Below, piece after piece: positions 7,363 through 47,198 of a stretch of DNA of 51,226 nt. The notes beneath the pieces were generated by a model that searched no databases, was not told the origin of the DNA, and saw nothing but the letters and a program-made list of their open reading frames with translations. Made by a program: the position numbers and the translations under genes. Source of the DNA: Ignavibacteria bacterium (GTDB lineage Bacteria; Bacteroidota; Ignavibacteria; Kapaibacteriales; UBA4661); NCBI GenBank assembly GCA_014654705.1, contig JACVZY010000043.1:1-51226 (forward strand). Reading direction: 5' to 3'. Every line of letters starts with the position of its first letter. Position 1 is the first letter of the stretch.

Positions 7363-7367
7363 TTGTG

Positions 7368-20584: not shown

Positions 20585-23500
20585 CTACCGCACCACTTGT
20601 ATCTGCTGCGTGTACACTTCCTCCGCATCTACACTCAAACGCACGGTGTAGGAACCACTGGCAAAGCGTTCTACTCGTACAGGGAGAGTATGTGTACCTT
20701 TCGCTTGTACTTGGCTGAGAAATGTCCCCACCTCTTGCCCACGCACATCCACGAGCGAAACCGTCACAAAACCGCTCTTTGCGAGGGTATATGTTACTTC
20801 CAGAACGTCTCTTGAGGGATTGGGAGCAATGCTGACCGCCGTTATCCCGGCAGAAGCACCGGCAATAAGACGTTTTCCGCCTGCTTGCGATACTCTTGCT
20901 CGGAAGTTCGTATTAGCGTACTCCGTCAAGTACACACCCTCCCAGCGAAGGTCTTCGATTTCGATACTGGTCGTATCGGTTTCTCCTGCCACCACTTGAA
21001 GATTGAACTGCGCAAGCACAAGCCCATTGGTGGGCGCAATCGTCGTCCGCGGCATTAACGCCCGTTCCATTCGATTCCCCACTCCGCTATTCCGCGCACG
21101 ACGCCATACGTTTTCTTGCGGGGCAAGCGTCAGCACTTGATTGCCGTACCGTATCGAACCATTGATAAACGGCTCCGCCCGCTGTAGTAGCATATCACGA
21201 CCGGCACTACCGGATGCTAAATACAACTCCATCGGGACCGTCGTTCCCGGCGGTACATTGTTGATATTATTTGCAGGGCGCACACCCACCCGTGCCACAA
21301 GGTCAGAAGGCTGTCTGAGTCGGGCAAACGAGCGCACTATCACTCTTGCCGTGTCGAACATTGTTGGCGTACTCTGTACAATACCACTCGATTCCAGAAG
21401 AGCCGTTGGAAGTGCACCAATACTCTTTGCTTCGCATCGGATAAGAACGGTTGCGGTATCACCGACACCGAGTTTGGAATCCGGTGCGCCTTTGATTTGG
21501 AACACACCCTCACCACCACTTCGGAAGCGCGTTTGCGCAATATCTACCGGCACATTTCCACGATTGATGAGCAGCGCTGCCGCCACGCGGGGCAAACCAA
21601 TCAGGATCGTATCCAATGCCGGAGCCACCAGTTTTAATGCCGAACCGATTCCCCGTAATCGCTCGGAGTGCACCCACACATCGCGTTGACCGTTCACGCT
21701 ATAGTCAAAGCGGATATCGGCACTAAAGCGTCTGACCGCATCCGGCGTAAACCTCACGGTATAGTCCCGAACTTCTCCCGCTTGGAAGACCGTACCACCC
21801 GATGGCTGTCCGCCAGATTCAACCCGAAAGCCAGCATCACTTGATTCCAGGGAAACAAGTGTTGCCGCGCTGCTTGCCACATTCCGCACTCTCAGTATTG
21901 CAAACGCCGTATCACCTCGCGGTATGCGTCCGAAGTCCGTACGTCGCGCCCAGAAGGCAACGTCCCTATCGGTCGTAACAAAAGTGGAAGACGTTGACCA
22001 GACACTTTCGCCAAATCTGTTTCGCGCCACCACACGCCAGTAGTACGTAGTCGAAGGCTGAAGAGCATTCAGCTGCGGTGCTTCCACGATACCCGTTTGT
22101 ATTGCTTCAAGCGTTTGCTGCACATTCTGGCTGTTTACTACTCTACCAAAGTCTGCTTGCGTAGCTATCTGTGCTGTGTACGATGCCGCACCCTCACTTG
22201 TCGTCCACACCAACGTCGGACGTAAAGCGGTGGTTTCGTTCCGCTCCGGCGCTATCAGAATAGGCACCGGCGGCGCACTCTTCGGCTCGACCGCCAGTAA
22301 TGTTTGCTCGCGTGAGATAAGCGTCAGATTTGGTAACAGCGGATTGGTGACATAACACCGATACACGCCCGCGTCCGCATCTTGGAACGAAGCAAACACC
22401 ACCGTACTGGTCGTACTCTTGGCAGTAATGGGTTTCCACGCCCCATCCGGCTGGCGTTTACGCCACTCATACCAATTACGCTCGCCGCTGACTTGTAACG
22501 ACAGACGAGCAACACCGTCCAAAGCCACTTCTTCTGTCCTCTCCGGACCCACTTCCGCCTGGGGCGCATATCGGAAGATAGGCGTCCAACGATTATTCTC
22601 CAGCGGACCGAACTCAAACGCATTGTTATCCACCGCCACGGTGTTCAAACGAATAATCGAACGGAGGTCCGGCATATTCGTCAGCGCATTCTTGCTGAGA
22701 AGCAACGTTTGCAAACGCACAAGCCCTGCAAAACCCTCCGGTACAACACCTGTCAAGCGGTTACTGTCCAATGCCAATGTTCGCAAGCCCGTCAGCGTAG
22801 CCCATGAATCCGGAATACCATCGGTAATGGCATTCACTCCGAGGTCAAGCACTTGCAATCCTGTCAATCCTGTCACCTGCGCGGCTCCTTTGAATGCTTT
22901 TATGGTCTCCTCGTTATTGCCCCATGCTGCCGGAAGAGCGCCCGTTAAGCGGTTCTTACGCAGATTAAGCACCGTGAGCAACCGTAGTGTGCCCAAGCCC
23001 GACGGCAGCGAATCCGAAAGTTCATTCGCGCTTGCATCCAGTACGCTCAATCGTTCCAGATTCAGCAAGCATTGTGGGATAGGTCCGTAGAGCCGATTAT
23101 TGTTCACAATTGCTCTCTCCAAATTTATCAGACAGCATAGGACATTACTCAAGCTATCACGCAAGGCATTGTTACTGATGTCCAAATCGCGCAGCTTGAG
23201 AAGACCACACAAGTCTTTCAGATTGCCCGTGAGATTATTCTTACCCAGATTGAGGGTTTCGAGCAGCTTGAGTTTGCTGAGACTACGCGGCAACGTACCA
23301 TTCAAACCATTTCCGGACAAGTCCAGCGCCCGCAATCCATCGAGGCGAGCAAGCGCAGAATCGACCACCGCACTGCTGACGGTGCCGCGCAGATTATTGC
23401 TTGGCAAACGCAGCTCACGGACTCTTCCACCTTCCACCGTCACACCATACCACGAGCCGACAAAGCCCCGCAGCCAGTTGGTGTTCCGCGTCCACGACGT

Positions 23501-26500
23501 ACCGCCTAAGGCGGAATACAGAGTAACCAACGCTACCGAGTCCTGACGGGCAACACCACCCACAACAGCACCGGTATAGCGGAACGTAGCGGTTGTCGTA
23601 ATCGTCCCCAACGGCGTGCGGATAACAACGGCACCACTTGCCACATTCCCGACAACGCTGACTATCAAGCGCGAATTCTGAACCACAAACGATTGCACCG
23701 GCACGCCACCAATCGTGATATCCACAATACTTGACCGCAAGCTTGTACCAAAATTGCGACCTTCGATAGTAATGGTCGTAATACTATCGCCTTCTTCCGG
23801 CGTAAAGCCGGTGATGACCGGTGCATCGGGCGCGAATACCGGAACCTGCAATGAGGCGGAAGTTATTCCCTGTGGTGTTCGTACGCTCAATACGGCTTGC
23901 GTGGAAAACACGGTCTGCGGTACAACTCCCGATGGAATGCGAAACGTGAGTGTCGTTGAGGAAGTATAGACTGCACCCGGAATGGCAATGCCCCCAAAAA
24001 ACACGCTTGCTGCGGACTGACCATTCGGATTGTACGGAAAGTTGACACCGCGAACGGTGAGGAAAGCACCCTCAACAGCCGGCACGGGCTCAAAGCCTGT
24101 AATGGTCGGATTGAGCTGGGGCGTACCGCCAAAAGATTGTGTTGCCGTTACCGTACCGCCACGAGTGCTCACACTGATGCTCGCGCCGGTGCTCACACCA
24201 CTTGGAATAATTGCCCGTATGCTTCGTCCGTCCGCGCTGACCGTAAATGTCGCTGTGGTATTCCCGAAGCGTACTGCCGTTGTCCCCAAGAAGTTTGTTC
24301 CCGATATTTCCACAATCTGCCCCGCCGACCCCACCGTGGGTGAAAAACCCGTGATCGAAGGTGGTGCAATAATGGTCAGGGCAGTGCCGGAGACAGCACT
24401 GCCGCCACTTGTTTGGATGCGAATAAAGCCCGAACCCGTCGCGCCGCCCGCTCCGGCAGGAACAGTGAGGGTGATACCGGTCGAAGAGGTAAGGATATAG
24501 TTCGTCACCGGCACACCACCGATAGTGATACTACTAATCAAGCGGAAATCCGTACCCCTAAGCGTTATCGTCTCGCCTGCCGCAGCAGTGCCGGGCGAAA
24601 AACCGAGAAGAGTCGGTGGCGGAAGAACGCCCACGACTGTCGCCGTGGTAGCGATACCGCCCCATGACTGCACCGTCAGATTACCCGTCGCGGCGGCGGT
24701 GAAACGCACTCGCATTTGCGTAGGGGAAATGACTTCCACACTGGATGCCGTGATACCCCCTATCCGCACCACCGGCAGATACAATTCACCCGATGTCGGT
24801 GTGCCATAAAAATTATTTCCACTGATGACTATATCTTGCCCCAGCGCAAAGAACTCAGGCGAGACCGTTGCCATGGTCGGCGGTCCAATAAACGTGAACG
24901 GCTGAAACGACGTGGTAGAGCCACTGGTGGCCGTTTGCAGCGTAATAGGTCCGGTTTGCGTTCCGGACGACAGTGTCAGTGTAATGCGTGTCGAAGAAAG
25001 TACCGTAAAGCTCACCGGCACACCGCCGATACGGACGCCGGTCAGATTGTTCAGGTTCGTACCGTTCACTACCACTCTTGTGCTGCTCGTGCCTATCGTC
25101 GGACCAAAATTTGTTATCGTCGGCTGTTGCGACGGCGCAACGGCACTAAACGGCGTACCGATGGTAAAGGTGCTAAAATTTGCAAACGTACTGCTTTGAA
25201 TCTGATTACCCGACACCGAGCCACCGATATTGGTGTAGATACCGTTCCGCGTGGGTGATTTTGCCACCACCGAACCTACCGGAATCGGCTGCACAAATGC
25301 ACCAAAGCGCCCCAACTCTGCACGGCTCTGCGTATGGTCGCCCGCCAGCAAGCGCACATTCCAATACTCTCCCTGCCCTATGGCGCTGAGTGTACTGTCC
25401 ATCGTCCCGCCTTGTGCACCACTAAAAGCTTCAGCTTCTAGGAGTGGAGAGTTACCGCCCGTGCGTGGGTCTATGAGCGTGAATGGCAGGTATTTGCCCG
25501 CACGTCCGGTAGGGAACAACCATGAACCGGAGCCACTAGTGAGAATATTGGTCGGAAAATATCGACGAATGGGACCTTCAACAAATGACGAATCATTACC
25601 GCCGACAATCGCATTGAAATTTGTGTTCACTACTATTGGATGGTTCGATGTGTCCGAGCGCAGGAATCCCCGCGCCATAGAAAGACCGCCTCGAATCAAC
25701 ATCGGCGAACCAAGAGTCAGCACCGATGCCGGACGATTCATCGTAAAATCGTTCAATACATTCGTGGCGATATTGAATGTGCCTTGGATGGCTGCCGGCG
25801 TCCCGCTTTGGTGACCGATTTCCACATTCGAGAAATTGTTCGCAATAAACGCACCGCGTAAATCCAAGCGCCCTTGCAGAAGGATATTCCGATTGCGGAT
25901 GTCGAGCAAACCTCCCAGTACAAGACCGCTTAAGAAAGTCTTATGATCGTCCAGCACCGCCGTCACGCCTTCATCCACCACCACCGTTGCCGGCATGGAA
26001 GACGGGAACTCTAATGGTGTCGTCGTACGGACGACATTGGTACCGGAATACTGCAAAATAGTCATGGGGCTTTGATAGAGTGGCGCAGTGCCCGTTATCG
26101 TACCACTGCCCACAAAACGGAGCGTTCCACCCGTCGAGGCAGTACCCTCCACGATTAATGTTCCGTTATTGACGAGCGTCATGCCATTGTCCACCGTCAG
26201 GACAGAAGGTGCTTGGACGCGCATGGTAACGCCCGCGCCAAGAGTAAAGGTAGCATTTGCCGTAGCAATCGTGGAACTCAGAACACCATTGCCCATGACA
26301 ATAAATGTTGTTCCGGGTGTCGTCAACGATGCTGCCGGAACCCCTAAACCATAGTTCGTGAGCCAATTGGACGGTACCGAAGCATCGCCACTGCGGAAAT
26401 AATACGCTCCGCTCACCAAAGAAACCGTTACCGCCGTGGAATGAGAAAATCCGAGAGCGTCGGTCACCGTGACGGTGTACGCCTGCCCTGCGGCACCATT

Positions 26501-35500: not shown

Positions 35501-38500
35501 GGTGGTCATCGTTTGATTGAACGTAGGGGAAATTGTCGCGTTGACGGTGGCGGTGTTTATGTTGCGGGCGGGGGCAAACGTCGTCAAGACAGGCTGCACG
35601 CCGTTTTTCCAAATATAAATTTGATTGTCCGCATTGAACGCGATATCGAGGTCGCCGTCTCCATCATAATCTGCCGGCGGTGTAGGGTACGAATTGCCTG
35701 CAAACGTTCCATATGTGAGCGGTGAGGACAGAGTCGGGAACGTACCCGAATTATTCCCAAGACCAACCCGAAACGAACTCGAAGAGAGGATCGAGGCAAT
35801 GATGTCCATCTGACCGTCACCGTTCACGTCCGCAAAGGTCGGATAAGTATAGCCGATGGCAGAAGCCCCCATCATCGTAGCCGACGCAGGAAGGATGGAT
35901 GCGGTTCCCGTGTTCAAGAAAATACCGATGTCCGCCCCGCGTCCGCCGACCGCCACATCCAAACGACCGTCGTTATTGATGTCGGCAATCGAAAGATAAA
36001 TCGGTACGTTTGCGCACGTATAGGGCGAACCCGTTGCCGTTTGGGAAAAATTCCCCGTGCCGTCGTTGAGGCGAATCGAAATCGTGTTTTGAGTATCGTC
36101 GGTAATAACCCAATCCAAATCTCCGTCGTTGTCCATGTCGGCGAATTGCGACCAATCCCGCCCTGATACTGCCGCCGCTTGCGCGTAGGTTTGTTCGGTG
36201 CCGGCAAAGCTTCCGTTGCCGAGGTTCAGGAATCGCCCGATGAGCGTATTGCTGCTCGTGAAATAGGTAACGCCCAAATCCAAAAATCCATCGCCGTTCA
36301 CGTCACCGAGTGTAAGACCGCGGACGCCCGTATTGGAGGTTGCGAGGGGCGAACCGACCATTTGCGAAGGGAAAGCACCAGTACCGTCGTTTTTGAAGAT
36401 ACGAATTTGATTTCCGGTGTTAAAATCGGTGTTCAAAATGTCGATAAACCCGTCATTATCGACGTCCGCAAGAATACTGCGGGCAGTGCTGCTGCCGTAC
36501 ACGCCGCTCACGAGAGCGCCGACCGCAAATGTTCCGTCGCCGTTTCCGAGATAGACCCGCATTTGCGTGGCATTGATATATGCTACAATATCCAAGCGAC
36601 CGTCATTGTTCAAATCTGCCGTAAGAATATCTGCCGAAGAGTAGCCGTTAAAAACTGTTCCCTGCAGGAACTGATAAAACGTGCCGGGTCCGGGACCCGC
36701 TTGTGCTCGGAAACCGTACACCTGCGGACGCGCCGCTATGCCCACGCTGCCTGCAAGGCTCGTCTGCGCATTGGTGACCGTTACCCACACCTGCTCGCCC
36801 GGACGGAACGCCGTCGTGGGCGCGAGGCTTGGCGTTGCCGTGCCGCCGCCCGAATACGTTCCTGCCTTCAAGCCTGAAAAGCCGCCGTGTACCTTCATTA
36901 CGGGTGCCGATGCCGTCGCCGTTGTCATTGTTTGGCTGAAGGTCGGAGAAATTGCCGCGCTGACTGCCGCGGTGTTGATGTTGCGTGCGGGAGCAAACGT
37001 GTTCAAGAGGGGTTGAACGCCGTTTTTGACGATTGTTATACCGTTTTCTGAGTATCGAAAACTCAGCATATCCAAATCCCCGTCGCCGTCAATGTCGGCA
37101 AGATCGGACATCGAAATACCCCCAATCGACGGATTTCGCGTTGCCGAACCGAAACTGCCCGTTCCGTTATTCAAACGCACGACAATATCGGAAGCACTCG
37201 TACCGTCGGTTGTGACCAAATCAAGACTTCCATCACCATTAACATCTGCAAAACGTACCGGAATACCGCTTGTACCTGTGGGGTACGATGTCGGAGCAGC
37301 AAACGTGCCGTCACCATTATTGAAGCGCACTTCCGCATTACTGCCGACAGTAATCGGTGTCGAAACAAGATCAATATACCCGTCACCGTTGAGGTCACCC
37401 GATGCAATATCCGCTTCTGTCGCCGATGCCGTATAATTTGCCTGTGCACCGAAAATACCAGTACCGTCGTTGCGAAATACTGCTACCTGACCCGTAGCAG
37501 CCAACTGCGTCATCACATCAACATCGCCATCGTTGTCCATATCTCCAACCAATGCCCTGCGTGGAAAACTGCCTGCACCGGTCGCCATTGCCCCGGCAGC
37601 CGTAAACGTCCCGTTGCCGTTGTTCCGAAAAACGCTCAAACTATGAATAAACGTATTGACAGCAATCAGGTCGAGATACCCGTCGGCGTTTACATCCCCC
37701 GTTACAACCGTTGTCGGACCGGAGGTTGCATAGACAGTAGCACCGGCAAAGGTGCCATTACCGTTGTTGAGCAGAACACTCAGATTGCCCGCACCGCCGA
37801 AGTTTGCCGTTGCTACGTCGAGATCACCGTCATTGTCGAAATCGCCGACCGTCATGGATTCAGGTCCTGTAGCACCGCCGCCAATACCGTACGTCACGGG
37901 TGCCGCAAAAGTGTTCGGTCCCGTATTGAGAATAATTGCCACTTGATTTGACCAGCGCAGTAGCGCAACAATATCGGGATTGCCGTCGCCGTTCATGTCG
38001 GCGATGTTCGTTCCCGCTACTCCTGAAGGAAGAGCAATATTGGCAGCAGGATAAAACGTCCCCGGACCCGCGCCAGCCCGCGTCCGCACACCCATTACAA
38101 ACGGACGTGTGAATGCACCGCCTGTGCTTTGCGCATTGGTAACACTGACCCAGACTTGTTCGCCCGGATTGAAGTTTGCCGTTGTGGTAAACGTCATCGT
38201 TGCGCCTGCGCCCGAAAATCCTTGACCGGAGCGGTAGCCTTGAGAAGTCGTGCCGTGAACTTTCATCACATTGCGGGCTGTCGGGTCAGTAAAGGTTGCT
38301 GCCGTTGCGTTTTGCGAGAAGGTTACACTGATACCCGTCGGAACTGTACTCATCGGCACTGTCACAGGCGAACCTGTGGGCGTGCCGTAATTCATTGTAT
38401 TCATAAGCGGCACGGTCGTCGGGCGTGGATTATATGGAGGGATGTTTCCCAAAACGGTCATAGGAAGCGCATTCAGCAAAATCGAAGCATTGTTGCTGGT

Positions 38501-41500
38501 AAAATTAGAAGCGACAAGGTCAAGATCGCCATCACCATCGAAGTCAGCACTGGTAAGAGAACGAGGTCCGGTACCGACAGCATACTGTACTGCCGTGCCA
38601 AAACTTCCCGCGCCTGCATTAAGAAGAACACTAACGTCGTTACTGGTAAAATTTGCGACACTAAGGTCAAGATCGCCATCACCATCAACATCGCCGCTTG
38701 TTATACCTCGTGGACCGACTCCAACAGCGTAATTCACCGCAGCAGCAAATATACCACTACCGGTATTGAGCAGAATGCTGGTATTGTTGCTATTACCATT
38801 GGCAACAGCTAGATCAAGGTCGCCATCACCATCAAAATCACCACCGGTAATTGCTGCGGGGGCTGTACCAACAGCATAACTTGCTGTTAAAACAAACGTG
38901 CCGCTTCCGGTATTGAGGAAAATATCAACATTATTACCAAGAAAATTTGGAACAGCAAGGTCAAGATCGCCATCACCATCAAAATCGCCGCTTGTTATTG
39001 CCCGAGGCTGCGAACCTCCGGCGTAATTTGCCGCAGGAGCAAATGTTCCGTTGCCATTGTTCAGAAGAATGCTGATGGTATTACCATTGAGGTTTGCCAC
39101 GGCAAGGTCAAGGTCGCCATCACCATCAAAGTCGCCGCTTGTTATTGCTCGAGGCTGCGAACCGACTCCATAGTTCACCGCTGCGGCAAATGCTCCGGCA
39201 CCTGTGTTCAAAAGAACACTGACATTATCGATACCATTATTCGCTGTCGCTACATCAAGGTCGCCATCATTATCAAAATCACCGCTTATCACAGAATATG
39301 GTTGTGAACCGACTCCATAGTTCACCGCTCCTGCAAATGCTCCGGCACCCGTATTAAGGAGGATACTTGTATTGGCGCTACCAAAATTTGCAATAGCAAC
39401 ATCAAGATCGCCATCACCATCGAAATCGGCACTTGTTATGGATTCCGGATTTGTTCCCGCAGCAGGAGCAGAACTTGGCTGGAATACAGCCGGACCCGTT
39501 CCCGCTCTTGTGCGGAAACCCATCACAAAGGGACGAGTGAATGCGCCGCCCGTGCTTTGAGCATTGGTTACCGTTACCCAGACTTGTTCACCGACGTTAA
39601 AGTTTGCTGTCGTTGTAAACGTCATCGTCGCGCCTGCGCCCGAAAACCCTTGACCGGAACGATACCCGCGTGAGGTCGTTCCAAAAACTTTCATCACATT
39701 GCGGGCTGTCGGGTCGGTCAAAGTTGCCGACGTTGCATTTTGCGAGAAGGTAACGCTGATGCCCGTCGGAACAGTATTCATCGGCACTTTCATGGGCGAA
39801 CCTGTGGGCGTACCGTAGTTCATCGTGTTCAAAAGTGGCGTGGTGGTGGGGCGTGGCGTGAACGGCGGGATGTTGCCCAGAACATTCATCGGCGGTGAGT
39901 TGAACAAAATAGAAACATTATTGCTGCCAAAGTTCGCCGTGGCAAGGTCGAGGTCGCCATCGCCGTCGAAATCACCTCCGGTAACTTCCCGTGGATCTGT
40001 CCCGACGGCGTAATTCACCGCCGCTGCAAAAGCACCCGCGCCCGTGTTCCGAAGAATGCTTGTATTGTTGCCGCCATTATTCGCCGTGGCAAGGTCGAGG
40101 TCGCCGTCGCCATCGAAATCACCACTGGTAACGGATATTGGTCCTGTCCCGACGGCGTAATTCACCGCCGCTGCAAAAACGCCCGCGCCAGTGTTCAGCA
40201 GAATGCTCGTATTGTTGCTCCCTTGATTCGTCACGGCAAGATCGAGGTCGCCGTCGCCGTCGAAATCACCACTGGTAACGGACCGTGGCTGTGTCCCGAG
40301 GGCGTAATTCACCGCCGCTTCAAAAGTTCCTGCGCCAGTGTTCAGCAGAATGCTTGCATTACCGCTATTAAAATTCGCCACGGCAAGGTCGAGGTCGCCG
40401 TCGCCGTCGAAATCCCCACTGGTAACGGATACTGGATTTGTCCCGACGGCGTAATTCACTGCAGCTGCAAAAACGCCCGCGCCGGTATTCAGAAGAATAC
40501 TCGTATTGTTGCTATTTGAGTTCGCTACGGCAAGGTCGAGGTCGCCGTCGCCATCGAAATCGCCGCTGGAGACAGAATATGGAGTTGTCCCGACGGCGTA
40601 ATTCACCGCTGCTGCAAAAGTACCCGCGCCGATGTTCAGGAGAATACTCGTATTGTTGCTACTTTCATTCGCTACGGCAAGGTCGAGGTCGCCATCGCCA
40701 TCGAAATCCCCACTGGTAACGGATATTGGTCCTGTCCCGACGGCGTAATTCACCGCCGCTGCAAAAGCACCAGCGCCGGTGTTCAGGAGAATACTCGTAT
40801 TGTTACTGCCATAGTTCGCCGTGGCAAGGTCGAGGTCGCCGTCGCCATCGAAGTCGCCACTGATAACGGAATACGGACTTGTCCCAACCACCGGCACTGA
40901 ACCGGGCTGGAACGTCGCCGGTCCCGCGCCCGCCGCCGTGCGGAAACCCATCACAAAGGGGCGCGTACTTGCACCACCCGTGCTTTGAGCGTTGGTTACC
41001 GACACCCACACCTGCTCACCGCTCCGGAAATCTACCGTCGGATTCACCGTTGCCGTTGCCCCCGCCGCACTGTATGTGGCTGCTTTTAAGCCCGTGAACC
41101 CGCCGTGAACACGGAAGTTTGTTGAGTTTACTGTTGGGGCATTCAGAGTTTGATTGAACGGAATAACGATATTTGAGTTTAATGCCGCCGTCATGGTGTT
41201 GAACGTCGGTGTGGTAGGCGGGATGCCGAAGGGCGGCACGTTGTTTTGGACGTTCATCGACGCTACATTGAACAAAATCGAAACGTTGTCACTACCGTCG
41301 TTCGCCGTAGCAAGGTCGAGGTCGCCGTCGCCATCGACGTCCCCGACAATTATGCCAAATGGACTATTTCCAGCCGGATAGTTCACTGCTGCTGCATAGA
41401 TGCCTGTACCAATGTTGCGGAGGATGCTGACGTTGTCACTACCCTCGTTCGCCGTAGCAAGGTCAAGGTCACCGTCGCCATCGAAGTCCCCAGCGCTTAT

Positions 41501-42739
41501 GCCGTGTGGACTATTCCCCGCCGGATAGTTCACTGGTGCTGCAAATATCCCCGACCCCATGTTCAAAAAGATACTTACATTGTTGCCGCTACCATTCCCC
41601 GTCGCTAGATCAAGGTCGCCGTCGCCGTCGAAGTCCCCGGCGGTTATACCGCGTGGACCATTCCCGGCCGGATAGTTCACTGCTGCTGCAAATACCCCCG
41701 ACCCCGTGTTCAAAAAAACGCTTACATTATCGCTGAGAAAATTCGCCGTCGCAAGGTCCAGGTCGCCGTCGCCGTCGAAGTCTCCGGCGATTACCTGGCG
41801 TGTATCACTACCCGCCGGATAGTTCACCGCTGCGGCGTACGTCCCCGATCCAGTGTTCAAAAACACACTCACATTGCCGTCGAGGTTATTCCCTGTCGCA
41901 ATATCGAGGTCGCCGTCGCCGTCAAAGTCACCAATTGTTATCCCGTTTGTACCATTCCCCGCCGGATAGTTCACTGCTGCTGCAAATACCCCCGACCCCG
42001 TGTTCAAACGCACACTCACATTGTCGCCGACAGCATTCGCCGTCGCTAAATCGAGGTCGCCGTCCCCATCCAAATCTCCGGCGATTATCCCGAGTGGACC
42101 ATTCCCAGTTGGATAGTTCACCGCTGCGGCATATGTTCCTGACCCCATGTTCAAACGCACACTTATATTATTGCTGACTAAATTCGCTGTCGCAATATCG
42201 AGGTCGCCGTCTCCGTCAAAGTCACCAATTGTTATGCTGCGTGGACTATTACCCACGACAGGGGTAGAGCCGGGAACAAACGTCCCCGAACCCACGCTAG
42301 CAGCCGCACGGAAAGAATATACTTCGGGGCGACCATCGATAAAGACGGCATTTTGCGCGTTTGTCACCGTCACAAATATCTGTTCGCCCGGTTTGAGATT
42401 ATTCGTTGGGTTCAGTTGGATTTGATTTGCCCCCGGATTGGAATATGCTCCCGAAAGCCGCCCCGTCATCATTCCATACACTTTCAGCACATTTGCCGAA
42501 CCCGTGGCACCCGTGACGTTTTGTGTAAAGGATACATCAATGTTTGTACCGAGTGGCGCTGTGTTCAGATGCCGTATGGGGCTGCGGGTACTGACGTTGG
42601 GCTGCGCAGACAGCATCGACGGCAGACTGCACAAGCACAGCATGAGAGAAAGCGCCGTAAACACTCTCGAAAGGAAACCGCCACGAGAATAACCAGCATT
42701 CATGCGCAACACGCGATAGGAAGGGAAACCAAAAGTCAT
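20585..42739 (-). CDS. Giant multidomain secreted protein with ten FG-GAP propellers and T9SS sorting domain
   Basis: About 7384 aa. The ATG at 42739 (or 42703) starts a normal signal peptide ending at MLSAQ. The frame stays open to 43342, but that extension overlaps another gene and has no protein character. Order of domains: eight units of Ig-like Big_5 domain (motif GEQVWVTVTNAQ) plus a seven-bladed FG-GAP/VCBS propeller (about 47-3743); a beta-helix-like segment (to about 4160); two more units (to about 5063); LamG (to about 5280); an Ig-like linker; a second beta-helix (to about 5866); six IPT/TIG domains (to about 6390); leucine-rich repeats; Ig; FN3; ASH-like; and the type A sorting domain (from about 7302). 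Nearly every blade carries a calcium-binding DFDGDGDLD loop. Export to the cell surface by the type IX system is expected. The role is probably adhesion or carbohydrate/protein binding; this is inferred. Confidence 0.93.
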   Translation of the reverse strand: MTFGFPSYRVLRMNAGYSRGGFLSRVFTALSLMLCLCSLPSMLSAQPNVSTRSPIRHLNTAPLGTNIDVSFTQNVTGATGSANVLKVYGMMTGRLSGAYSNPGANQIQLNPTNNLKPGEQIFVTVTNAQNAVFIDGRPEVYSFRAAASVGSGTFVPGSTPVVGNSPRSITIGDFDGDGDLDIATANLVSNNISVRLNMGSGTYAAAVNYPTGNGPLGIIAGDLDGDGDLDLATANAVGDNVSVRLNTGSGVFAAAVNYPAGNGTNGITIGDFDGDGDLDIATGNNLDGNVSVFLNTGSGTYAAAVNYPAGSDTRQVIAGDFDGDGDLDLATANFLSDNVSVFLNTGSGVFAAAVNYPAGNGPRGITAGDFDGDGDLDLATGNGSGNNVSIFLNMGSGIFAAPVNYPAGNSPHGISAGDFDGDGDLDLATANEGSDNVSILRNIGTGIYAAAVNYPAGNSPFGIIVGDVDGDGDLDLATANDGSDNVSILFNVASMNVQNNVPPFGIPPTTPTFNTMTAALNSNIVIPFNQTLNAPTVNSTNFRVHGGFTGLKAATYSAAGATATVNPTVDFRSGEQVWVSVTNAQSTGGASTRPFVMGFRTAAGAGPATFQPGSVPVVGTSPYSVISGDFDGDGDLDLATANYGSNNTSILLNTGAGAFAAAVNYAVGTGPISVTSGDFDGDGDLDLAVANESSNNTSILLNIGAGTFAAAVNYAVGTTPYSVSSGDFDGDGDLDLAVANSNSNNTSILLNTGAGVFAAAVNYAVGTNPVSVTSGDFDGDGDLDLAVANFNSGNASILLNTGAGTFEAAVNYALGTQPRSVTSGDFDGDGDLDLAVTNQGSNNTSILLNTGAGVFAAAVNYAVGTGPISVTSGDFDGDGDLDLATANNGGNNTSILRNTGAGAFAAAVNYAVGTDPREVTGGDFDGDGDLDLATANFGSNNVSILFNSPPMNVLGNIPPFTPRPTTTPLLNTMNYGTPTGSPMKVPMNTVPTGISVTFSQNATSATLTDPTARNVMKVFGTTSRGYRSGQGFSGAGATMTFTTTANFNVGEQVWVTVTNAQSTGGAFTRPFVMGFRTRAGTGPAVFQPSSAPAAGTNPESITSADFDGDGDLDVAIANFGSANTSILLNTGAGAFAGAVNYGVGSQPYSVISGDFDNDGDLDVATANNGIDNVSVLLNTGAGAFAAAVNYGVGSQPRAITSGDFDGDGDLDLAVANLNGNTISILLNNGNGTFAPAANYAGGSQPRAITSGDFDGDGDLDLAVPNFLGNNVDIFLNTGSGTFVLTASYAVGTAPAAITGGDFDGDGDLDLAVANGNSNNTSILLNTGSGIFAAAVNYAVGVGPRGITSGDVDGDGDLDLSVANFTSNDVSVLLNAGAGSFGTAVQYAVGTGPRSLTSADFDGDGDLDLVASNFTSNNASILLNALPMTVLGNIPPYNPRPTTVPLMNTMNYGTPTGSPVTVPMSTVPTGISVTFSQNATAATFTDPTARNVMKVHGTTSQGYRSGQGFSGAGATMTFTTTANFNPGEQVWVSVTNAQSTGGAFTRPFVMGVRTRAGAGPGTFYPAANIALPSGVAGTNIADMNGDGNPDIVALLRWSNQVAIILNTGPNTFAAPVTYGIGGGATGPESMTVGDFDNDGDLDVATANFGGAGNLSVLLNNGNGTFAGATVYATSGPTTVVTGDVNADGYLDLIAVNTFIHSLSVFRNNGNGTFTAAGAMATGAGSFPRRALVGDMDNDGDVDVMTQLAATGQVAVFRNDGTGIFGAQANYTASATEADIASGDLNGDGYIDLVSTPITVGSNAEVRFNNGDGTFAAPTSYPTGTSGIPVRFADVNGDGSLDLVTTDGTSASDIVVRLNNGTGSFGSATRNPSIGGISMSDLADIDGDGDLDMLSFRYSENGITIVKNGVQPLLNTFAPARNINTAAVSAAISPTFSQTMTTATASAPVMKVHGGFSGLKAGTYSGGGTATPSLAPTTAFRPGEQVWVTVTNAQTSLAGSVGIAARPQVYGFRAQAGPGPGTFYQFLQGTVFNGYSSADILTADLNNDGRLDIVAYINATQMRVYLGNGDGTFAVGALVSGVYGSSTARSILADVDNDGFIDILNTDFNTGNQIRIFKNDGTGAFPSQMVGSPLATSNTGVRGLTLGDVNGDGFLDLGVTYFTSSNTLIGRFLNLGNGSFAGTEQTYAQAAAVSGRDWSQFADMDNDGDLDWVITDDTQNTISIRLNDGTGNFSQTATGSPYTCANVPIYLSIADINNDGRLDVAVGGRGADIGIFLNTGTASILPASATMMGASAIGYTYPTFADVNGDGQMDIIASILSSSSFRVGLGNNSGTFPTLSSPLTYGTFAGNSYPTPPADYDGDGDLDIAFNADNQIYIWKNGVQPVLTTFAPARNINTATVNATISPTFNQTMTTATASAPAFKVWGGFSGLKAGAYSGGGTATPSLAPTTQFRPGEQVWVTVTNAQTNLVGSVGIAARPQVYGFRTQAGAGPARLINSATSGVGNNFAWLLAGDVTGDGNPDIIGTSGMLYVYAGDGAGNFAAPTTHGASTGNRRLACTGDFNNDGRLDVVSAILFGGVDVFLNTGSALPAAANSTIAVGGSAFALCVADFNADGNMDFAVTDYFAGTVRIAFGNGTGAFPVVSGPLALGTVNASALKAGDVDNDGDIDIIAGNFSATNNFHVLRNDGMGNFTVTQTLTVGNALGDLADIDGNGGLDAAVSDAATGNVIILRNPGTGTFTADPAITGLSANAIDAVFADMDGLNGLDLVVDGKIYLNNGAGSFALFSSDGQTATYSQAVADFDNDGDMDIVITTGGGTQPWFLWKNATPMNVAGNLPPFTPRPATTPLLNTVSAALATNITIPFSSNLNAPTVNAANFRVHGGFTGLKVAAYSAAGATATVNPTVDFKSGEQVWVTVTNAQSTGGVSTRPFVMGFQMRAGTGPGTIYSTSSPQTGLGPYCVTSGDFDGDGDLDLATANRNGNSVSVLLNGGIGSFAAAVNYGAGAQPLGITSGDFDNDGDLDLAVANYSGNNVSILLNIGGGTFAAAVDYGAGSGANSVSAGDFDGDGDLDLAVANYNGSNVSVLMNNGNGTFAGAVNYGTGSIPRATTIGDFDGDGDLDMAVSNGGSSNMSMLLNTGNGVFAAAVNYATGTNPVICTSGDFDGDGDLDFALSNFNSNDISVLRNNGNATFAAAVNYPVGANASGITTGDFDGDGDLDIAATSDNKLNVLMNIGGGVFAAAVNSDVGLFPTSVVHGDFDGDGDLDLATANEFSHNVSIMKNGIQPVLTTLAPARNINTAALAASISPTFTQTMTTGTASVNAFKVWGGFTGLKAGAYSGGGTATPSIAPTTAFRPGEQVWVTVTNAQTSSVGSVGIAARPHVYGFRTAAVAGPAQFVPGAGIPSGLVVRRAVAGDVNNDGLMDIVAASDGSSQIAVMRNLGGGTSFSAPALSTVGMNGGGPVLGDFNNDGWIDIATANYGANNVSVLLNSGTGTFPGVGTTYGTGGVQPNMLVTADVNGDGNLDLITANTATTTLAVFLGTGTGTFPATATTYGTANASPFSLAAGDFDNDGDIDIALGNFAGTVEIMQNTGSGSFVSLAGYATGFTNVLNLHAVDINNDGNLDLVAGTNGGSNVSVLQGLGTGLFAAPQTNTLTANANGLSVGDFDGNGQVDVVAGAGTGNMAFLRGNGTMTLTAAVNTTIAGNNLNDGLAVADFDGDGDMDVLASLSSGNAVQILFNTIVPTTYYYQSGNANNPANWNSLPWGGGLAATSFSSPATDFYVMGGGATTTASVIAPITIGANVSLHVTTPSVLAVGNFVTITNNGFLNVSGSTLQAARLQLVGSGAVTGNPVRYWSTNATLEYQTIAGTLTTNVELPSPMPGSVWVNGSNTVTLWGSTQVNGTFTMQSGTFAVGANTLTLNGAATFTGGSMTGGASSGLAITGAGNLNGAMTLTGGLQTLTMNRASATLTLGAPLDVTGTLTLTQGYVNNTPANVLSVTNPIVGAIAGGGTTAHIAGTLRRSLPAGGGIFNFPVGGGTGTTYLPLSMNYASAAGGATYEVESILGASGGTETGIMAGLTLSTAEYWRTNSSGVVNTATLTFQRTPPMGSLTGGAGGNVLGNSVTSNGAYTGFLSTVVPNISISNTAPQNLSAGTMFYGIGSSIGPPLVSALSPTRNNPSATPATSPIAITFSQVLTAFSSRTWGSMTGQNLTATSFAGNIGTQGGNTFKPGEKIHTTVMTGTSSAAGFMTAPHVYEFVGEAVNGIGTLYRTNGFSVGTTSLYSSAVADVDKDGNVDAIIIEQNAGSARIQVARGDGMGGVLAPIGYLMSGPSPQGRFVTTGDFNNDGWIDIVAANNGDSKVDVFINNGSGGFGAPVIVPTAFGLVSVVTADFNGDGNLDIAATSFNSHEINVYSGNGGGGFALLYNVTLPLTPSPNAACAGDFDNDGDMDFLVFANNGNRYTFRNNGAGSFVVTSVAGTGATPKVFDMDGDGDVDIVYEGGPTGVAILENDGTGNFPITHNIASGLAAPYGLAVGNFDNDPRPDIFCNDGTRYMVLRNTGGWAFTQSATGSPEGVFACSPGDFDNDGDLDIFALGSAGGVLLKNGSQPILTSVAPTRHTNTATLGASIAPVYNQTMTTGTASVGAFKVWGGFTGIKAGTYSGGGGTTPSLAPTVAFLPGEQVWVSVTQAQTSVVGSVGIAARPVVYSFRAAAGVGPGTFQQVQTVAGGGGNTRSVAAGDWDNNGVLDLVMVNQNGSNNIRLMMNNGAGSFTAQAPLAMTLPSVPVVRDFDNDGNADIIVSSLGTSSAVIFRNFPAGTMTNVGSIAGLGGLDNLAAADFNGDGLIDIVASCGLSGIRVARNNGGMSFTTYQTIPVGNTESCAVGDVDNDGDVDIVYGTNGGNTVGFLVNDGFGNFSTTPFVVGAVNTAIYLSVGDLDNDGDVDVVVGNINSGAALTILENTTSGGILSFGIINRLVPSADVHIADYNGDGSLDIVSVNNNTVYALLNAGAGTLAARFPASASSTTLISGTTSFCLASGDWDGDGDIDIATANHASNDVSILFNQNAPIRAGFGNALSFNGINQSVNAGAALAPTSPLTLEAWINPASFVGGGHIVGKNNVVGLSVNAAGNLVFQIGSGAAWLSTLTSTTTVPLGAWSHVAATYDGATMMLYVNGMAVGSLSTAVAVGANASVFSIGALSGAAPFFTGAIDEVRVWNTALGQNVVSTYNGVEISTTHPNWGSLVSYWRLNEYGGASAADSKGVNTGTLLNAPVNVISQAPVSMVADPAVGSVNAALLPATVAAGLPTYTLVAPASALGTVSAPVANAITFTNLTSPVALNATDTFGYQATDGVSVSTATMTVRYEPRLTTGGAQYAVALVNTPLTTPTVVGGTGPLTWQWSPATSLSATNVASPIFNGAAGQAYTVTVTDALGFSHSTAVTVSLVSGAYYFRSGDASVPSNWLTNYGLGVPAASLTTPGTTFIVMGNGVLSSTIATANATFTLGAGVTMRVQAPSVLTVDNGMTLVNNGTLIVEGTASTGGTLRFVGSGTITGTAPLYQSPMTILQYSGTNVVRTTTPLEFPSSMPATVVVDEGVTAVLDDHKTFLSGLVLGGLLDIRNRNILLQGRLDLRGAFIANNFSNVEIGHQSGTPAAIQGTFNIATNVLNDFTMNRPASVLTLGSPMLIRGGLSMARGFLRSDTSNHPIVVNTNFNAIVGGNDSSFVEGPIRRYFPTNILTSGSGSWLFPTGRAGKYLPFTLIDPRTGGNSPLLEAEAFSGAQGGTMDSTLSAIGQGEYWNVRLLAGDHTQSRAELGRFGAFVQPIPVGSVVAKSPTRNGIYTNIGGSVSGNQIQSSTFANFSTFTIGTPFSAVAPSQQPTITNFGPTIGTSSTRVVVNGTNLNNLTGVRIGGVPVSFTVLSSTRITLTLSSGTQTGPITLQTATSGSTTSFQPFTFIGPPTMATVSPEFFALGQDIVISGNNFYGTPTSGELYLPVVRIGGITASSVEVISPTQMRVRFTAAATGNLTVQSWGGIATTATVVGVLPPPTLLGFSPGTAAAGETITLRGTDFRLISSITIGGVPVTNYILTSSTGITLTVPAGAGGATGSGFIRIQTSGGSAVSGTALTIIAPPSITGFSPTVGSAGQIVEISGTNFLGTTAVRFGNTTATFTVSADGRSIRAIIPSGVSTGASISVSTRGGTVTATQSFGGTPQLNPTITGFEPVPAVEGAFLTVRGVNFPYNPNGQSAASVFFGGIAIPGAVYTSSTTLTFRIPSGVVPQTVFSTQAVLSVRTPQGITSASLQVPVFAPDAPVITGFTPEEGDSITTITIEGRNFGTSLRSSIVDITIGGVPVQSFVVQNSRLIVSVVGNVASGAVVIRTPLGTITTTATFRYTGAVVGGVARQDSVALVTLYSALGGTSWTRNTNWLRGFVGSWYGVTVEGGRVRELRLPSNNLRGTVSSAVVDSALARLDGLRALDLSGNGLNGTLPRSLSKLKLLETLNLGKNNLTGNLKDLCGLLKLRDLDISNNALRDSLSNVLCCLINLERAIVNNNRLYGPIPQCLLNLERLSVLDASANELSDSLPSGLGTLRLLTVLNLRKNRLTGALPAAWGNNEETIKAFKGAAQVTGLTGLQVLDLGVNAITDGIPDSWATLTGLRTLALDSNRLTGVVPEGFAGLVRLQTLLLSKNALTNMPDLRSIIRLNTVAVDNNAFEFGPLENNRWTPIFRYAPQAEVGPERTEEVALDGVARLSLQVSGERNWYEWRKRQPDGAWKPITAKSTTSTVVFASFQDADAGVYRCYVTNPLLPNLTLISREQTLLAVEPKSAPPVPILIAPERNETTALRPTLVWTTSEGAASYTAQIATQADFGRVVNSQNVQQTLEAIQTGIVEAPQLNALQPSTTYYWRVVARNRFGESVWSTSSTFVTTDRDVAFWARRTDFGRIPRGDTAFAILRVRNVASSAATLVSLESSDAGFRVESGGQPSGGTVFQAGEVRDYTVRFTPDAVRRFSADIRFDYSVNGQRDVWVHSERLRGIGSALKLVAPALDTILIGLPRVAAALLINRGNVPVDIAQTRFRSGGEGVFQIKGAPDSKLGVGDTATVLIRCEAKSIGALPTALLESSGIVQSTPTMFDTARVIVRSFARLRQPSDLVARVGVRPANNINNVPPGTTVPMELYLASGSAGRDMLLQRAEPFINGSIRYGNQVLTLAPQENVWRRARNSGVGNRMERALMPRTTIAPTNGLVLAQFNLQVVAGETDTTSIEIEDLRWEGVYLTEYANTNFRARVSQAGGKRLIAGASAGITAVSIAPNPSRDVLEVTYTLAKSGFVTVSLVDVRGQEVGTFLSQVQAKGTHTLPVRVERFASGSYTVRLSVDAEEVYTQQIQVVR
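20588..20835 (-). other. T9SS type A C-terminal sorting domain of the giant protein
   Basis: The last 80 or so residues begin SIAPNPSRDVLEVTY and contain the VSLVDVRGQEV and GSYTVRLS strands of the Por_Secre_tail family. This domain directs passage through the type IX secretion pore and is usually cleaved or attached to anionic LPS. Confidence 0.9.
22620..23545 (-). repeat. Leucine-rich repeat block of the giant protein
   Basis: About ten repeats of plant-like LRR type (LRALDLSGNGLNGTLP, LETLNLGKNNLTGNL, LRTLALDSNRLTGVVP). The block starts with the cap-like stretch ALVTLYSALGGTSWTRNTNW found in many bacterial surface LRR proteins. One repeat pair contains Cys residues (CLINLE; CLLNLE). Confidence 0.85.
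23560..25130 (-). repeat. Six IPT/TIG domains of the giant protein
   Basis: Six Ig-like IPT/TIG units of about 85-95 residues follow one another. Each opens with a motif like ITGFSPTVGSAGQIVEISG and has a VRIGG or VFFGG turn. They form a stalk between the second beta-helix and the LRR block. Confidence 0.88.
25140..26410 (-). other. Second beta-helix-like segment of the giant protein
   Basis: Starts at YYFRSGDASVPSNW and runs through short repetitive strands (LTVDNGMTLVNNGTLIVEG; LGGLLDIRNRNILLQGRLDL). The first segment (30260-31510) has the same opening (YYYQSGNANNPANW) and the same closing module with RRSLP/RRYFP and EYW, so the two are paralogous. Confidence 0.65.
26900..27545 (-). other. 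LamG / concanavalin-like domain of the giant protein
   Basis: Residues LSFNGINQSVNAGAALAP through DEVRVWNTALGQN and VSYWRLNEYGG show the typical LamG_3 layout (LEAWINP, WSHVAATYDG, LYVNG, IDEVRVW). Such domains bind glycans or serve as surface modules. It directly follows the tenth propeller. Confidence 0.85.
27550..30260 (-). repeat. Propellers 9 and 10 of the giant protein
   Basis: Two units of Ig-like domain plus seven FG-GAP/VCBS blades, irregular in length and diverged. One blade of unit 9 has a degenerate calcium loop (NFDNDPRPD). The units are separated from propellers 1-8 by the first beta-helix segment. Confidence 0.85.
30260..31510 (-). other. First beta-helix-like segment of the giant protein
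   Basis: Opens at YYYQSGNANNPANW after propeller 8. Contains short G/T/N-rich strand repeats (LTLNGAATFTGGSMTGGASS; LTLGAPLDVTGTLTLTQG) and ends before unit 9. Confidence 0.65.
31510..42600 (-). repeat. Propellers 1-8 of the giant protein (56 FG-GAP/VCBS blades)
   Basis: Eight consecutive units of about 1.34-1.48 kb: unit 1 about 41257-42600, 2 to 39880, 3 to 38455, 4 to 37020, 5 to 35590, 6 to 34255, 7 to 32880 and 8 to 31510. Each has one Big_5-like domain and seven blades. In units 1, 2, 3 and 7 the blades are nearly identical and mostly exactly 49 residues (147 bp) apart, with GDFDGDGDLDLA in each. Units 4, 5, 6 and 8 are irregular. Confidence 0.92.
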
Positions 42740-43247: not shown

Positions 43248-43278
43248 TTTGCTGATGCGCTATAAAGATGTAGATTTG
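43248..43278 (+). promoter_or_regulatory. Bacteroidota-type promoter of the LytS-type kinase
   Basis: TTTG (43248-43251), a 19-bp spacer, and TAGATTTG (43271-43278) match the Bacteroidota consensus in full. It supports translation from 43357 rather than from the upstream TTG of the same frame at 43249. Confidence 0.7.
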
Positions 43279-43356
43279 CGTACTTCATTCCCGTTCTATA
43301 CTTGGGAAAGTGTAGGGCGAGGAAATCTGACCAGTTCATCACAGCACATATTCCCC

Positions 43357-46941: not shown

Positions 46942-47054
46942 TTCTTTATCTTGTTGATTTGAGTTCTCGCTTACGGTCTGTCTCTTCGTCCTCACATATT
47001 CATACGGTACTGGGCAGATCGCTCAGAAAGACGGACAGCAGACCTAAGGACTGC

Positions 47055-47081
47055 AAAAAAAATAAAGTGTCAATTTTTTTT
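47055..47081. terminator. A/T hairpin between convergent genes
   Basis: Eight A plus T, a 9-nt loop, then A plus eight T form a perfect 9-bp stem between the converging kinase and regulator genes. It may end transcription from both sides, though the stem is weak. Confidence 0.45.
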
Positions 47082-47087
47082 GGCTTC

Positions 47088-47164
47088 GGTGGCACAGAAA
47101 TTCTTGTCTGTGAGGTTTGAAGCAGTTTGCAAGGACTCGCGCAGACAAGTATGTCTTTGCCACC
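47088..47164. repeat. REP-like inverted pair
   Basis: A 25-nt arm at 47088-47112 (starting GGTGGCACAG, ending CTTGTCTGTG) pairs with 47140-47164 at 21 of 25 positions. Each arm is itself palindromic (CACAGA..TCTGTG; AGACA..TGTCT). Two small palindromes in opposite orientation around a short spacer is the layout of REP/BIME elements. Confidence 0.55.
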
Positions 47165-47198
47165 CAGAAAGATTTTTTCACTTATTTTTGAACTATTT

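What the first reader, a model, noticed from the sequence alone, without database searches (positions are those of the whole stretch)
20585..42739. A 7384-residue surface protein with ten seven-bladed propellers
Counting by eye, the protein holds ten units of Ig-like (Big_5) domain plus exactly seven FG-GAP/VCBS blades, 70 blades in all. Nearly all have a DxDxDG calcium loop. The protein continues with two beta-helices, LamG, six TIG, LRR, Ig, FN3 and a T9SS sorting domain. Exact seven-blade grouping in all ten units argues for ten closed propellers on a string. The size and the mix of binding modules suggest a long calcium-stiffened surface fibre for adhesion or prey/substrate capture.
Basis: partly seen in the sequence, partly recalled or inferred. 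Interest (0 to 1): 0.75.

Follow-up and report, generated by a model that had tools for sequence, protein, structure and literature searches.

The report
Giant adhesin with swappable seven-bladed propellers
A freshwater bacterium carries a gene for a 7,384-residue, probably surface-exposed protein with ten seven-bladed propeller heads, and comparison with its relatives suggests that such bacteria exchange whole heads between proteins and species while varying residues on one face, as if renewing what the fibre can grip.

Summary
In detail: one minus-strand frame (42739→20585, 7384 aa) with ten Ig-like (Big_5) connectors, each followed by exactly seven VCBS/FG-GAP blades (70 of 70). AlphaFold2 models cover three propellers; for two, structure comparison supports closed seven-bladed rings resembling integrin-α and virginiamycin-B lyase. 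The host is the Kapabacteriales MAG Clear-D13. Seven blades and Ig-linked propellers are ordinary for VCBS proteins.

The unexpected part is how the array is built. Connector and propeller have separate histories. Connectors with 78-95% identical DNA can flank very different propellers, changing sharply at the propeller edge; closely similar propellers occur between unlike connectors, apparently even across genera. Propellers behave as roughly 1-kb cassettes. Three or four of the window's ten look recently amplified. In the two youngest of the family, amino-acid-changing variation concentrates in the D-A' and B-C loops on one face and exceeds four-fold synonymous variation, while the calcium loop stays fixed. 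A similar pattern was reported for fungal HET-D/HET-E recognition propellers.

Best reading: a type IX-secreted, multivalent adhesin whose heads are exchangeable binding modules. Ligand, surface location and exchange mechanism are untested.

The parts
20585..42739 (-). giant surface-protein gene, 7384 aa, ATG at 42739, stop at 20585
   Evidence: the start is supported by a similar N-terminus (MTFG...) at the related locus in G001 (sequences printed, compared by eye)
42602..42739 (-). N-terminal signal-peptide-like segment (about residues 1-46)
   Evidence: sequence shows basic N-end, hydrophobic core and small-residue site; no signal-peptide predictor was available
42302..42586 (-). Big_5 connector 1
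41261..42301 (-). propeller 1 (7 blades; recently amplified)
40934..41218 (-). Big_5 connector 2
39893..40933 (-). propeller 2 (7 blades; youngest in this gene, mean blade identity 0.79; folded)
39506..39790 (-). Big_5 connector 3, 0.93 protein identity to a connector of contig C118
38468..39505 (-). propeller 3 (7 blades; recently amplified; DNA 47-70% to the propeller between the matching connectors in C118)
38063..38347 (-). Big_5 connector 4 (82% DNA identity to connector 3)
36995..38062 (-). propeller 4 (7 blades; old)
36686..36970 (-). Big_5 connector 5
35585..36685 (-). propeller 5 (7 blades; old; folded)
35276..35560 (-). Big_5 connector 6 (80% DNA identity to connector 5)
34262..35275 (-). 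propeller 6 (7 blades; old; folded together with unit 5, structure matches do not cover it)
33923..34207 (-). Big_5 connector 7
32885..33922 (-). propeller 7 (7 blades; weaker sign of recent amplification)
32564..32848 (-). Big_5 connector 8
31505..32563 (-). propeller 8 (7 blades; old; 0.76-0.80 identical to propeller 6 of L041, a contig binned to another genus, under an unlike connector)
30257..31513 (-). first non-propeller insert, solenoid-like in appearance, no family match
29960..30244 (-). Big_5 connector 9 (divergent)
28910..29959 (-). propeller 9 (7 blades; old)
28604..28888 (-). Big_5 connector 10
27554..28603 (-). propeller 10 (7 blades; old; about 0.66 position-matched identity to propellers of L035 and L060 under unlike connectors)
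27080..27508 (-). Laminin_G_3 / concanavalin-like domain (residues about 5078-5220)
26411..26911 (-). weak Big_9 stretch (below cut-off), Ig/PKD-like in appearance
25148..26410 (-). second non-propeller insert, solenoid-like in appearance, no family match
23555..25123 (-). six TIG domains
22621..23554 (-). leucine-rich repeats
21638..22564 (-). Ig (just under cut-off), FN3-like by appearance (no FN3 model matched) and ASH/HYDIN Ig domains
20588..20848 (-). type IX secretion type A C-terminal sorting domain
43249..46941 (+). divergent neighbour: Reg_prop/Y_Y_Y sensor histidine kinase; its 79% relative in G001 also sits beside a giant propeller gene

Best explanation
The gene encodes a type IX-secreted, cell-surface or released multivalent adhesin. 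Ten closed seven-bladed VCBS propellers, joined by Big_5 Ig-like connectors, are the binding heads; the LamG/TIG/LRR/Ig C-terminal part is stalk and further binding modules; the C-terminal tail is the export signal. Calcium in the A-B loops holds each propeller together. The D-A' and B-C loops of the seven blades form one variable face, which is the likely ligand surface. The repertoire of heads is renewed in two ways: new propellers arise by amplification of blades and diversify on that face, and finished propellers are exchanged as roughly 1-kb cassettes between giant genes and between species, with the similar connectors as likely recombination handles. Shown by sequence: the architecture, the exact blade count, the discordant histories of connector and propeller, and the concentration of variation in young propellers. 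Supported by models: closure of propellers 2 and 5. Inferred: calcium binding, adhesion, ligand binding by that face, location at the surface, homologous recombination as the agent. The ligand is unknown; the mucilage or cells of the co-cultured Dolichospermum are my first guess.
For: Closure: 70 of 70 blades in ten sevens; in the wider family 171 of 179 interior runs are exactly seven. Fold: pLDDT 89.6, pTM 0.88 for connector-propeller 2-connector; Z 34-35 to integrin alpha and virginiamycin-B lyase at rmsd about 2.4. Separate histories: of 130 pairs of old propellers with upstream connectors at least 75% identical, 104 have propellers under 50% and 19 at or over 60%; of 52 pairs whose blades 1-3 are at least 60% identical, 40 share blades 5-7 at that level, 22 the upstream connector and 12 of 26 the downstream one. 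Window unit 3 against C118 unit 3: DNA 78-95% in 12 of 13 connector-side steps of 60 nt (the last is 67%), 47-70% in the 18 steps of the propeller. L041 propeller 7 against L077 propeller 1: DNA 75-98% per step, flanks 33-62% but for one step of 73%. Four largely collinear pairs of giants keep most connectors while some propellers are kept (up to 0.96) and others are unlike or extra. Variable face: columns 4, 24, 2 and 25 have the highest non-synonymous variation in 39 propellers other than window propeller 2; in 30 propellers not looked at when the columns were chosen, the leading six are 4, 24, 25, 27, 26 and 2, all in these two loops. In the two youngest propellers first and second codon positions of columns 2, 4, 24, 25 differ in 0.62 and 0.70 of blade pairs against 0.13 and 0.27 at four-fold sites; with the four columns chosen from the 30 unseen propellers the values are 0.49 and 0.60 (p = 0.0046 and 0.0095).
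Against: No binding, surface or expression data. The PVL/tachylectin sugar-pocket GW motif of the D-A' loop is essentially absent (a W in an 11-residue stretch there in 2 of 70 blades), so PVL-type lectin activity is not indicated. The variation is not confined to the two loops: columns 39 and 21 in window propeller 2, and 42 and 39 in C118 propeller 3, vary almost as much. Across 30 non-overlapping pairs of homologous older cassettes the four columns change 1.6 times as fast as other sites (0.181 against 0.116) but less than four-fold sites (0.363), and of the four only column 25 is among the 12 most divergent, so there is no sign of a continuing arms race once a head is formed. In 81 old propellers the four columns do not stand out: column 25 is not among the first 12. 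Of eight other propellers tested, four showed no significant excess over four-fold sites. Type A tails can also yield soluble secreted proteins (recalled). Some contigs compared are short metagenome pieces and may be binned to the wrong species, which weakens 'between genera' but not the discordance itself.
Confidence: 0.6

Rival explanations
1. The propellers are a passive stalk: repeats are gained, lost and mixed without selection on binding, and only length and export matter.
For: Unit number varies freely between relatives (1 to 10 runs) and one whole connector+propeller unit differs between C81 and its G001 relative. In most young propellers the variable columns lie at about the synonymous level, and other columns vary as well.
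Against: In the two youngest propellers the loop columns vary beyond four-fold sites (p = 7.5e-5 and 0.0022 with the columns as first chosen; 0.0046 and 0.0095 with columns chosen from unseen propellers; sites taken as independent) while most of the blade is held. A passive rod does not explain why loops on one face lead in 30 unseen propellers.
Confidence: 0.17
2. The array is a self/kin recognition or inter-bacterial recognition device rather than an adhesin for a substrate, comparable in logic to the fungal HET-D/HET-E propellers.
For: The same pair of loops (d-a and b-c), repeat homogenisation and exchange between family members were reported for Podospora NWD genes (PMC1805685, passages read). 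The gene is embedded among sensor kinases.
Against: The family scans show no effector or signalling domain in the protein; it has an export signal; no population data on one species were available.
Confidence: 0.12
3. Connectors are held by strong purifying selection and the propellers simply diverged in place very fast; nothing was exchanged.
For: Young propellers share a consensus that makes descent hard to read, and rank correlations over all pairs differ little (0.32 for the two halves of a propeller, 0.21-0.22 for propeller and connector).
Against: Same-residue codons agree 0.60 in connectors but 0.43 in the propellers of the same pairs, close to the 0.42 background. The reverse case exists: L041 propeller 7 and L077 propeller 1 are alike at 75-98% per DNA step between unlike flanks, and window propeller 8 is alike to one in L041 under an unlike upstream connector.
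Confidence: 0.07
4. The propellers are catalytic or metal-storage domains (as in aldos-2-ulose dehydratase or rhamnogalacturonan lyase relatives).
For: Aldos-2-ulose dehydratase is among the structural matches (Z about 33).
Against: No catalytic family model matched at E up to 0.001; face residues vary blade by blade, unlike an active site.
Confidence: 0.04
5. The long frame or its mosaic is an assembly artefact of short reads.
For: A metagenome bin from 150-bp reads; several other giants end at contig ends.
Against: Longest exact internal repeat 57 bp; longest exact match to four other giants of the genome 47 bp; no stop in 22 kb; connectors flanking unlike propellers recur in separate genomes.
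Confidence: 0.03

Closest known systems
VCBS-core proteins with several propellers and Ig-like domains (Pereira and Lupas 2021, PMC8023676)
   Same: Signal sequence, several VCBS propellers with DxDxDG loops, mostly Ig-like partner domains (section 5 read).
   Different: Here ten propellers, a type IX tail, and evidence that propellers move independently of the connectors; I did not see exchange described in the parts read (passages and section 5).
Recently amplified, highly repetitive propellers (Pereira and Lupas 2022, PMC9218822)
   Same: Young propellers made of closely similar blades beside diverged ones.
   Different: That work reports varied blade numbers within VCBS lineages (passages); here 171 of 179 interior runs are seven, and several ages of propeller sit in one chain.
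HET-D/HET-E (NWD) WD40 recognition propellers of Podospora anserina (PMC1805685)
   Same: Family-wide exchange of repeat material, and diversified positions in the d-a loop and the b-c turn, on the top face (passages).
   Different: Different propeller superfamily, intracellular receptors of a fungus; there single repeats are exchanged, here mainly whole seven-blade propellers; selection here is inferred from far fewer data and other columns vary too.
Integrin alpha and Psathyrella velutina lectin propellers
   Same: Seven-bladed fold: integrin by sequence profile and structure, the lectin by Foldseek; DxDxDG metal loops (PMC8023676).
   Different: The lectin's GW pocket motif is missing; identity in the structure alignments 11-20%.
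RTX adhesins with Ca2+ in inter-repeat linkers (PMC7493085, listing only) and SprB-type type IX adhesins (recalled; listing only)
   Same: Very long, secreted, modular, probably adhesive.
   Different: The recognised metal loops here are inside blades; type IX tail instead of the RTX route; type A tail, whereas SprB's tail is of another type (recalled).

Membership tests
VCBS/FG-GAP beta-propellers | four-stranded blades with a DxDxDG loop between strands A and B | tested here: met
   FG-GAP_3 at E 1.7e-222 and 3.7e-190 in two pieces; loop complete in 67 of 70 blades, D or N accepted; strand order in the model
VCBS/FG-GAP beta-propellers | closed toroid with velcro closure | tested here: met
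   seven per unit, outer strand split between start and end of the unit; propellers 2 and 5 match closed seven-bladed folds. Three of ten propellers modelled, matches seen for two; no experiment
PVL/tachylectin-type sugar-binding propellers | GW motif in the D-A' loop | tested here: not met
   W in an 11-residue stretch around that loop in 2 of 70 window blades; motif from PMC8023676
Type IX secretion substrates | C-terminal type A sorting domain | tested here: met
   PF18962 30 bits against cut-off 27, TIGR04183 32.4 bits against cut-off 23
Type IX secretion substrates | machinery in the same genome | tested here: inconclusive
   SprA_N over cut-off; other components not searched
Surface adhesin | located on the cell and mediating attachment | not testable with these tools
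   domain content only
RTX / calcium-stiffened adhesins | calcium sites in the linkers between repeats | tested here: inconclusive
   the DxDxDG loops are in the blades; of the joints, one is predicted disordered and without Asp or Glu, one ordered; the others were not examined. Definition from a search listing
HET-D/HET-E-like diversified propellers (working likeness, not membership) | diversified positions in d-a and b-c loops | tested here: met
   columns 2, 4, 24, 25 and 4, 24-27, 2 in unseen propellers; strands. No likelihood test of selection was possible
HET-D/HET-E-like diversified propellers (working likeness, not membership) | WD40 sequence and NACHT receptor architecture | tested here: not met
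   FG-GAP/VCBS sequence, no WD40 or NACHT match at E up to 0.001

The most novel reading that the evidence does not exclude
Kapabacteriales keep a shared, horizontally exchanged repertoire of seven-bladed propeller cassettes: new heads are born by blade amplification under diversifying selection on one face and are then traded between giant type IX adhesins over conserved Ig connectors. This would be a bacterial counterpart, evolved in a different propeller superfamily, of the fungal HET recognition propellers.
Probability: 0.42. Interest if true: 0.85.

Novelty: new variant of a known kind. Interest (0 to 1): 0.7.

Why it matters
How bacteria change what a long surface fibre sticks to is little known outside a few well-studied groups (my impression, no call). 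Here a natural series, from near-identical to fully diverged propellers in one chain, with the same heads in different chains, makes both propeller evolution and adhesin specificity directly testable. If the variable face is the binding site, these genomes hold well over a hundred ready-made heads (173 compared here) on one calcium-loop scaffold. The likeness to fungal recognition propellers would show the same solution reached twice.

Tried and rejected
Orthologue of equal length: none in the rows listed for 40 related genomes (the lists are capped and many giant frames are cut by contig ends; the longest listed is 6065 aa). The related locus in G001 (79% identical kinase next door, similar signal peptide) has propellers and connectors unlike ours (0.34-0.59) and is cut by the contig end; in G007 the contig carrying the neighbouring DUF481 relative ends about 300 bases past it.

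Is seven special? No: the control of 79 loci outside the genus gave 71 of 107 interior runs of seven, 10 of fourteen, 7 of eight, 5 of fifteen, 4 of six and 10 others. It was picked by similarity to our blades, spans many phyla including Bacteroidetes, some loci gave no run, one locus of the same genus (L084) was left out, and close double hits were merged there but not in the family count. In the family set the eight runs that were not seven are four eights (three look like split hits by their spacing, one does not), two threes in L076 that may be one seven with a missed blade, a three in L048 and a four in L033. The family set (45 loci, 42 of which gave propeller proteins, plus the window) was chosen as matches to the window's own sequence, so it is biased. 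Runs under three blades and runs at contig ends were left out.

Variable columns: 2, 4, 24 and 25 were chosen after looking at ten young propellers; one search repeats the test with columns taken from 30 propellers not looked at, which gives a weaker but still significant excess. The ten propellers were picked by me, two of them (L068 unit 3, L074 unit 1) after one search had shown a raised ratio; p-values there treat sites as independent and are not corrected for number. The neutral simulation is a crude star model (0 of 2000 at each of five rates). Blade 7 was left out of these codon tests because its outer strand is missing. Continuing diversification of older cassettes: not seen. Lectin motif: not seen.

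A diversity-generating retroelement was considered and not searched. Pairs share members and are not independent. Structure alignments used 64 of 170 (A2) and 48 of 119 (A3) available segments.

Literature: the rows listed by searches showed no paper on exchange of propeller cassettes in bacterial adhesins; several lists were cut (for example 10 of 41 and 8 of 274) and only open-licence PMC papers are held, so this is no proof that none exists.
Full report
OBSERVATION. The frame runs on the minus strand from 42739 to 20585 and encodes 7384 residues. A profile made from its own blades finds ten groups of exactly seven. Blade 7 of each unit lacks the outer strand, and a matching strand stands between the connector and blade 1, as in the usual velcro closure (velcro as a feature of propellers from PMC8023676, passages). 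The metal loop is complete, D or N accepted, in 67 of 70 blades.

HOST. The genome held for the window has 5,724,991 bases, exactly the size published for Kapabacteriales bacterium Clear-D13, a metagenome-assembled genome from a Dolichospermum circinale enrichment of Clear Lake, taken on an 8-micrometre filter (PMC7714850, whole text; contig numbers differ, 118 here and 127 in the paper). Retention on that filter fits attached cells but does not prove attachment. The genome has SprA and at least 149 type A tails over cut-off. At least four other genes in it code for giant propeller proteins.

FOLD. Propeller 2 with its two connectors was modelled at mean pLDDT 89.6 and pTM 0.88; all ten-residue blocks of the propeller are 93-99, and the stretch leading to the next connector is below 50. 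Units 5 and 6 together reach 84.9 and 0.76, and the joint between them is ordered. Best structural matches of propeller 2 are integrin alpha heads (Z 35.4, rmsd 2.4, 319 residues aligned) and virginiamycin-B lyase (Z 34.6, rmsd 2.4, 278 aligned); Foldseek ranks a KICSTOR subunit, PVL-type lectins and LGI1 first. Propeller 5 matches integrin alpha (Z 30.9); the listed matches do not reach propeller 6. So closure in sevens is supported by structure for two propellers and by count for all ten.

SEVEN IS ORDINARY. In 45 proteins from 42 of 45 fetched loci, plus the window's, 171 of 179 interior runs are seven. In loci outside the genus 71 of 107 are seven and 10 are fourteen. Strings of VCBS propellers with Ig-like domains are described (PMC8023676, section 5).

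AGES. Within the gene, blades of units 1, 2, 3 and 7 share the same codon for a shared residue in 0.60, 0.75, 0.57 and 0.53 of cases, against 0.35-0.46 within the other six units and 0.32-0.54 between units. Units 1 to 3 were thus amplified or homogenised more recently; unit 7 lies at the upper end of the between-unit range and is less certain. Between young propellers, blades at the same position are little or no more alike than blades at different positions, whereas the old propellers with close relatives keep position-wise likeness to them.

CASSETTES. Upstream connectors at least 75% identical (205 pairs among 173 propellers) mostly stand before unlike propellers: 162 pairs below 50%, 21 at or above 60%. 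In the 162, same-residue codons agree 0.60 in the connector and 0.43 in the propeller; the background over all pairs is 0.39 for connectors and 0.42 for propellers. Restricted to old propellers, 104 of 130 pairs are below 50%. In reverse, 43 of 77 pairs with propellers at least 60% identical have connectors below 55%. Blades 1-3 predict blades 5-7 (40 of 52 pairs) better than the upstream connector (22 of 52) or the downstream one (12 of 26); starting from blades 5-7 the figures are 40 and 23 of 51, and 11 of 29. The rank correlations over all pairs are low throughout (0.32 for the two parts of a propeller, 0.21-0.22 for propeller and connector, 0.29 for the two connectors), so the contrast rests on the closely related pairs.

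EXAMPLES. Window connectors 3 and 4 match connectors of contig C118 at 0.93-0.94 protein identity; in DNA 12 of 13 connector-side steps are 78-95% and one is 67%, while the 18 steps of the propeller between are 47-70%, and the change falls at the propeller's edge. Both propellers are of the young type and share a consensus. Window propeller 8 and the insert after it are 52-100% identical per 25-residue step to L041 (18 of 24 steps over 75%), while the connector before it runs from 24 to 71%, rising towards the propeller. L041 propeller 7 and L077 propeller 1 are 75-98% identical per 60-nt DNA step, with flanks of 33-62% but for one step of 73%. C118 and its G004 relative share propellers 1, 4 and 7 at 0.96, 0.95 and 0.85 and propeller 6 at 0.65, but not 2, 3 and 5 (best match 0.40-0.49), although connector 5 is 0.93. 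Of three further pairs, two show the same mixture, and in one a whole connector+propeller unit is extra. As a yardstick, part of SprA is 79% identical between G000 and G001, 68% to G004 and 48-50% to G009; G001 against G009 was not measured. The closest cassettes exceed these values, which suggests transfer between species. The contigs of G009 are short and could be misbinned.

VARIABLE FACE. In propeller 2, blade pairs differ most at codon positions 1 and 2 of columns 4, 2, 24 and 25, followed by 39 and 21; in C118 propeller 3 at columns 24, 25, 42, 39, 2 and 4. Columns 2, 4, 24 and 25, chosen after seeing ten young propellers, lead the non-synonymous ranking in 39 propellers without window propeller 2. 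In 30 propellers not seen before, columns 4, 24, 25, 27, 26 and 2 lead. By the model's strands, columns 2 and 4 are at the start of strand A and 24-27 in the B-C turn, two loops that lie on the same face in propellers (established topology; stated for WD40 in PMC1805685). First and second codon positions at columns 2, 4, 24 and 25 differ in 0.70 of blade pairs in propeller 2 and 0.62 in C118 propeller 3, against 0.27 and 0.13 at four-fold sites (p = 0.0022 and 7.5e-5); with columns taken from the unseen propellers 0.60 and 0.49 (p = 0.0095 and 0.0046). Of eight other propellers tested, four have p below 0.05 and four do not. The Asp positions 10, 12, 14 and 18 do not vary in the ten young propellers. 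Among the 70 window blades there are 67 different quadruplets, a gap counted as a letter. The fungal HET propellers show four positively selected codons in the same two loops and exchange of repeats (PMC1805685, passages). Against a continuing race: between homologous old cassettes the four columns change less than four-fold sites (0.181 against 0.363), and in 81 old propellers they do not stand out.

MECHANISM AND LIMITS. I read the protein as a type IX-exported fibre of exchangeable binding heads. Shown: architecture, count, discordant histories, concentration of variation in the youngest propellers. Supported by models: closure of two. Inferred: adhesion, calcium binding, the face as ligand site, surface location, recombination through the similar connectors (connectors in this gene are up to 0.82 identical in DNA). 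Unknown: ligand, regulation, and whether the neighbouring sensor kinases matter; a 79% kinase relative sits beside a giant gene in G001 too.

Noticed in passing
window 151-16804 and 43249-48086: The giant gene is set among sensor kinases with Reg_prop/Y_Y_Y sensor parts (151-3444, 9642-13184, 13271-16804, 43249-46941), two other histidine kinases (3641-5497, 7461-9575) and a LytTR response regulator (47199-48086, minus).
   Followed up: partly
G000 contig C29, about 16-66 kb: A row of further giant proteins resembling the C-terminal TIG/LRR/type IX part of the window protein; the search with the window's first propellers lists no match on that contig.
   Followed up: no
   Followed up: no
window 25148-26410 and 30257-31513: Two inserts of about 420 residues, alike by eye, with no Pfam or NCBIfam match; the first travels with propeller 8 in L041.
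   Followed up: partly
L119 (Roseivirga sp.) and L116 (Hymenobacter actinosclerus): Other long proteins with six and five propeller runs, in 5152- and 2785-aa frames.
   Followed up: no
L033 and L048, N-terminal ends: Runs of four and three blades before the first full propeller, perhaps a decayed propeller.
   Followed up: no
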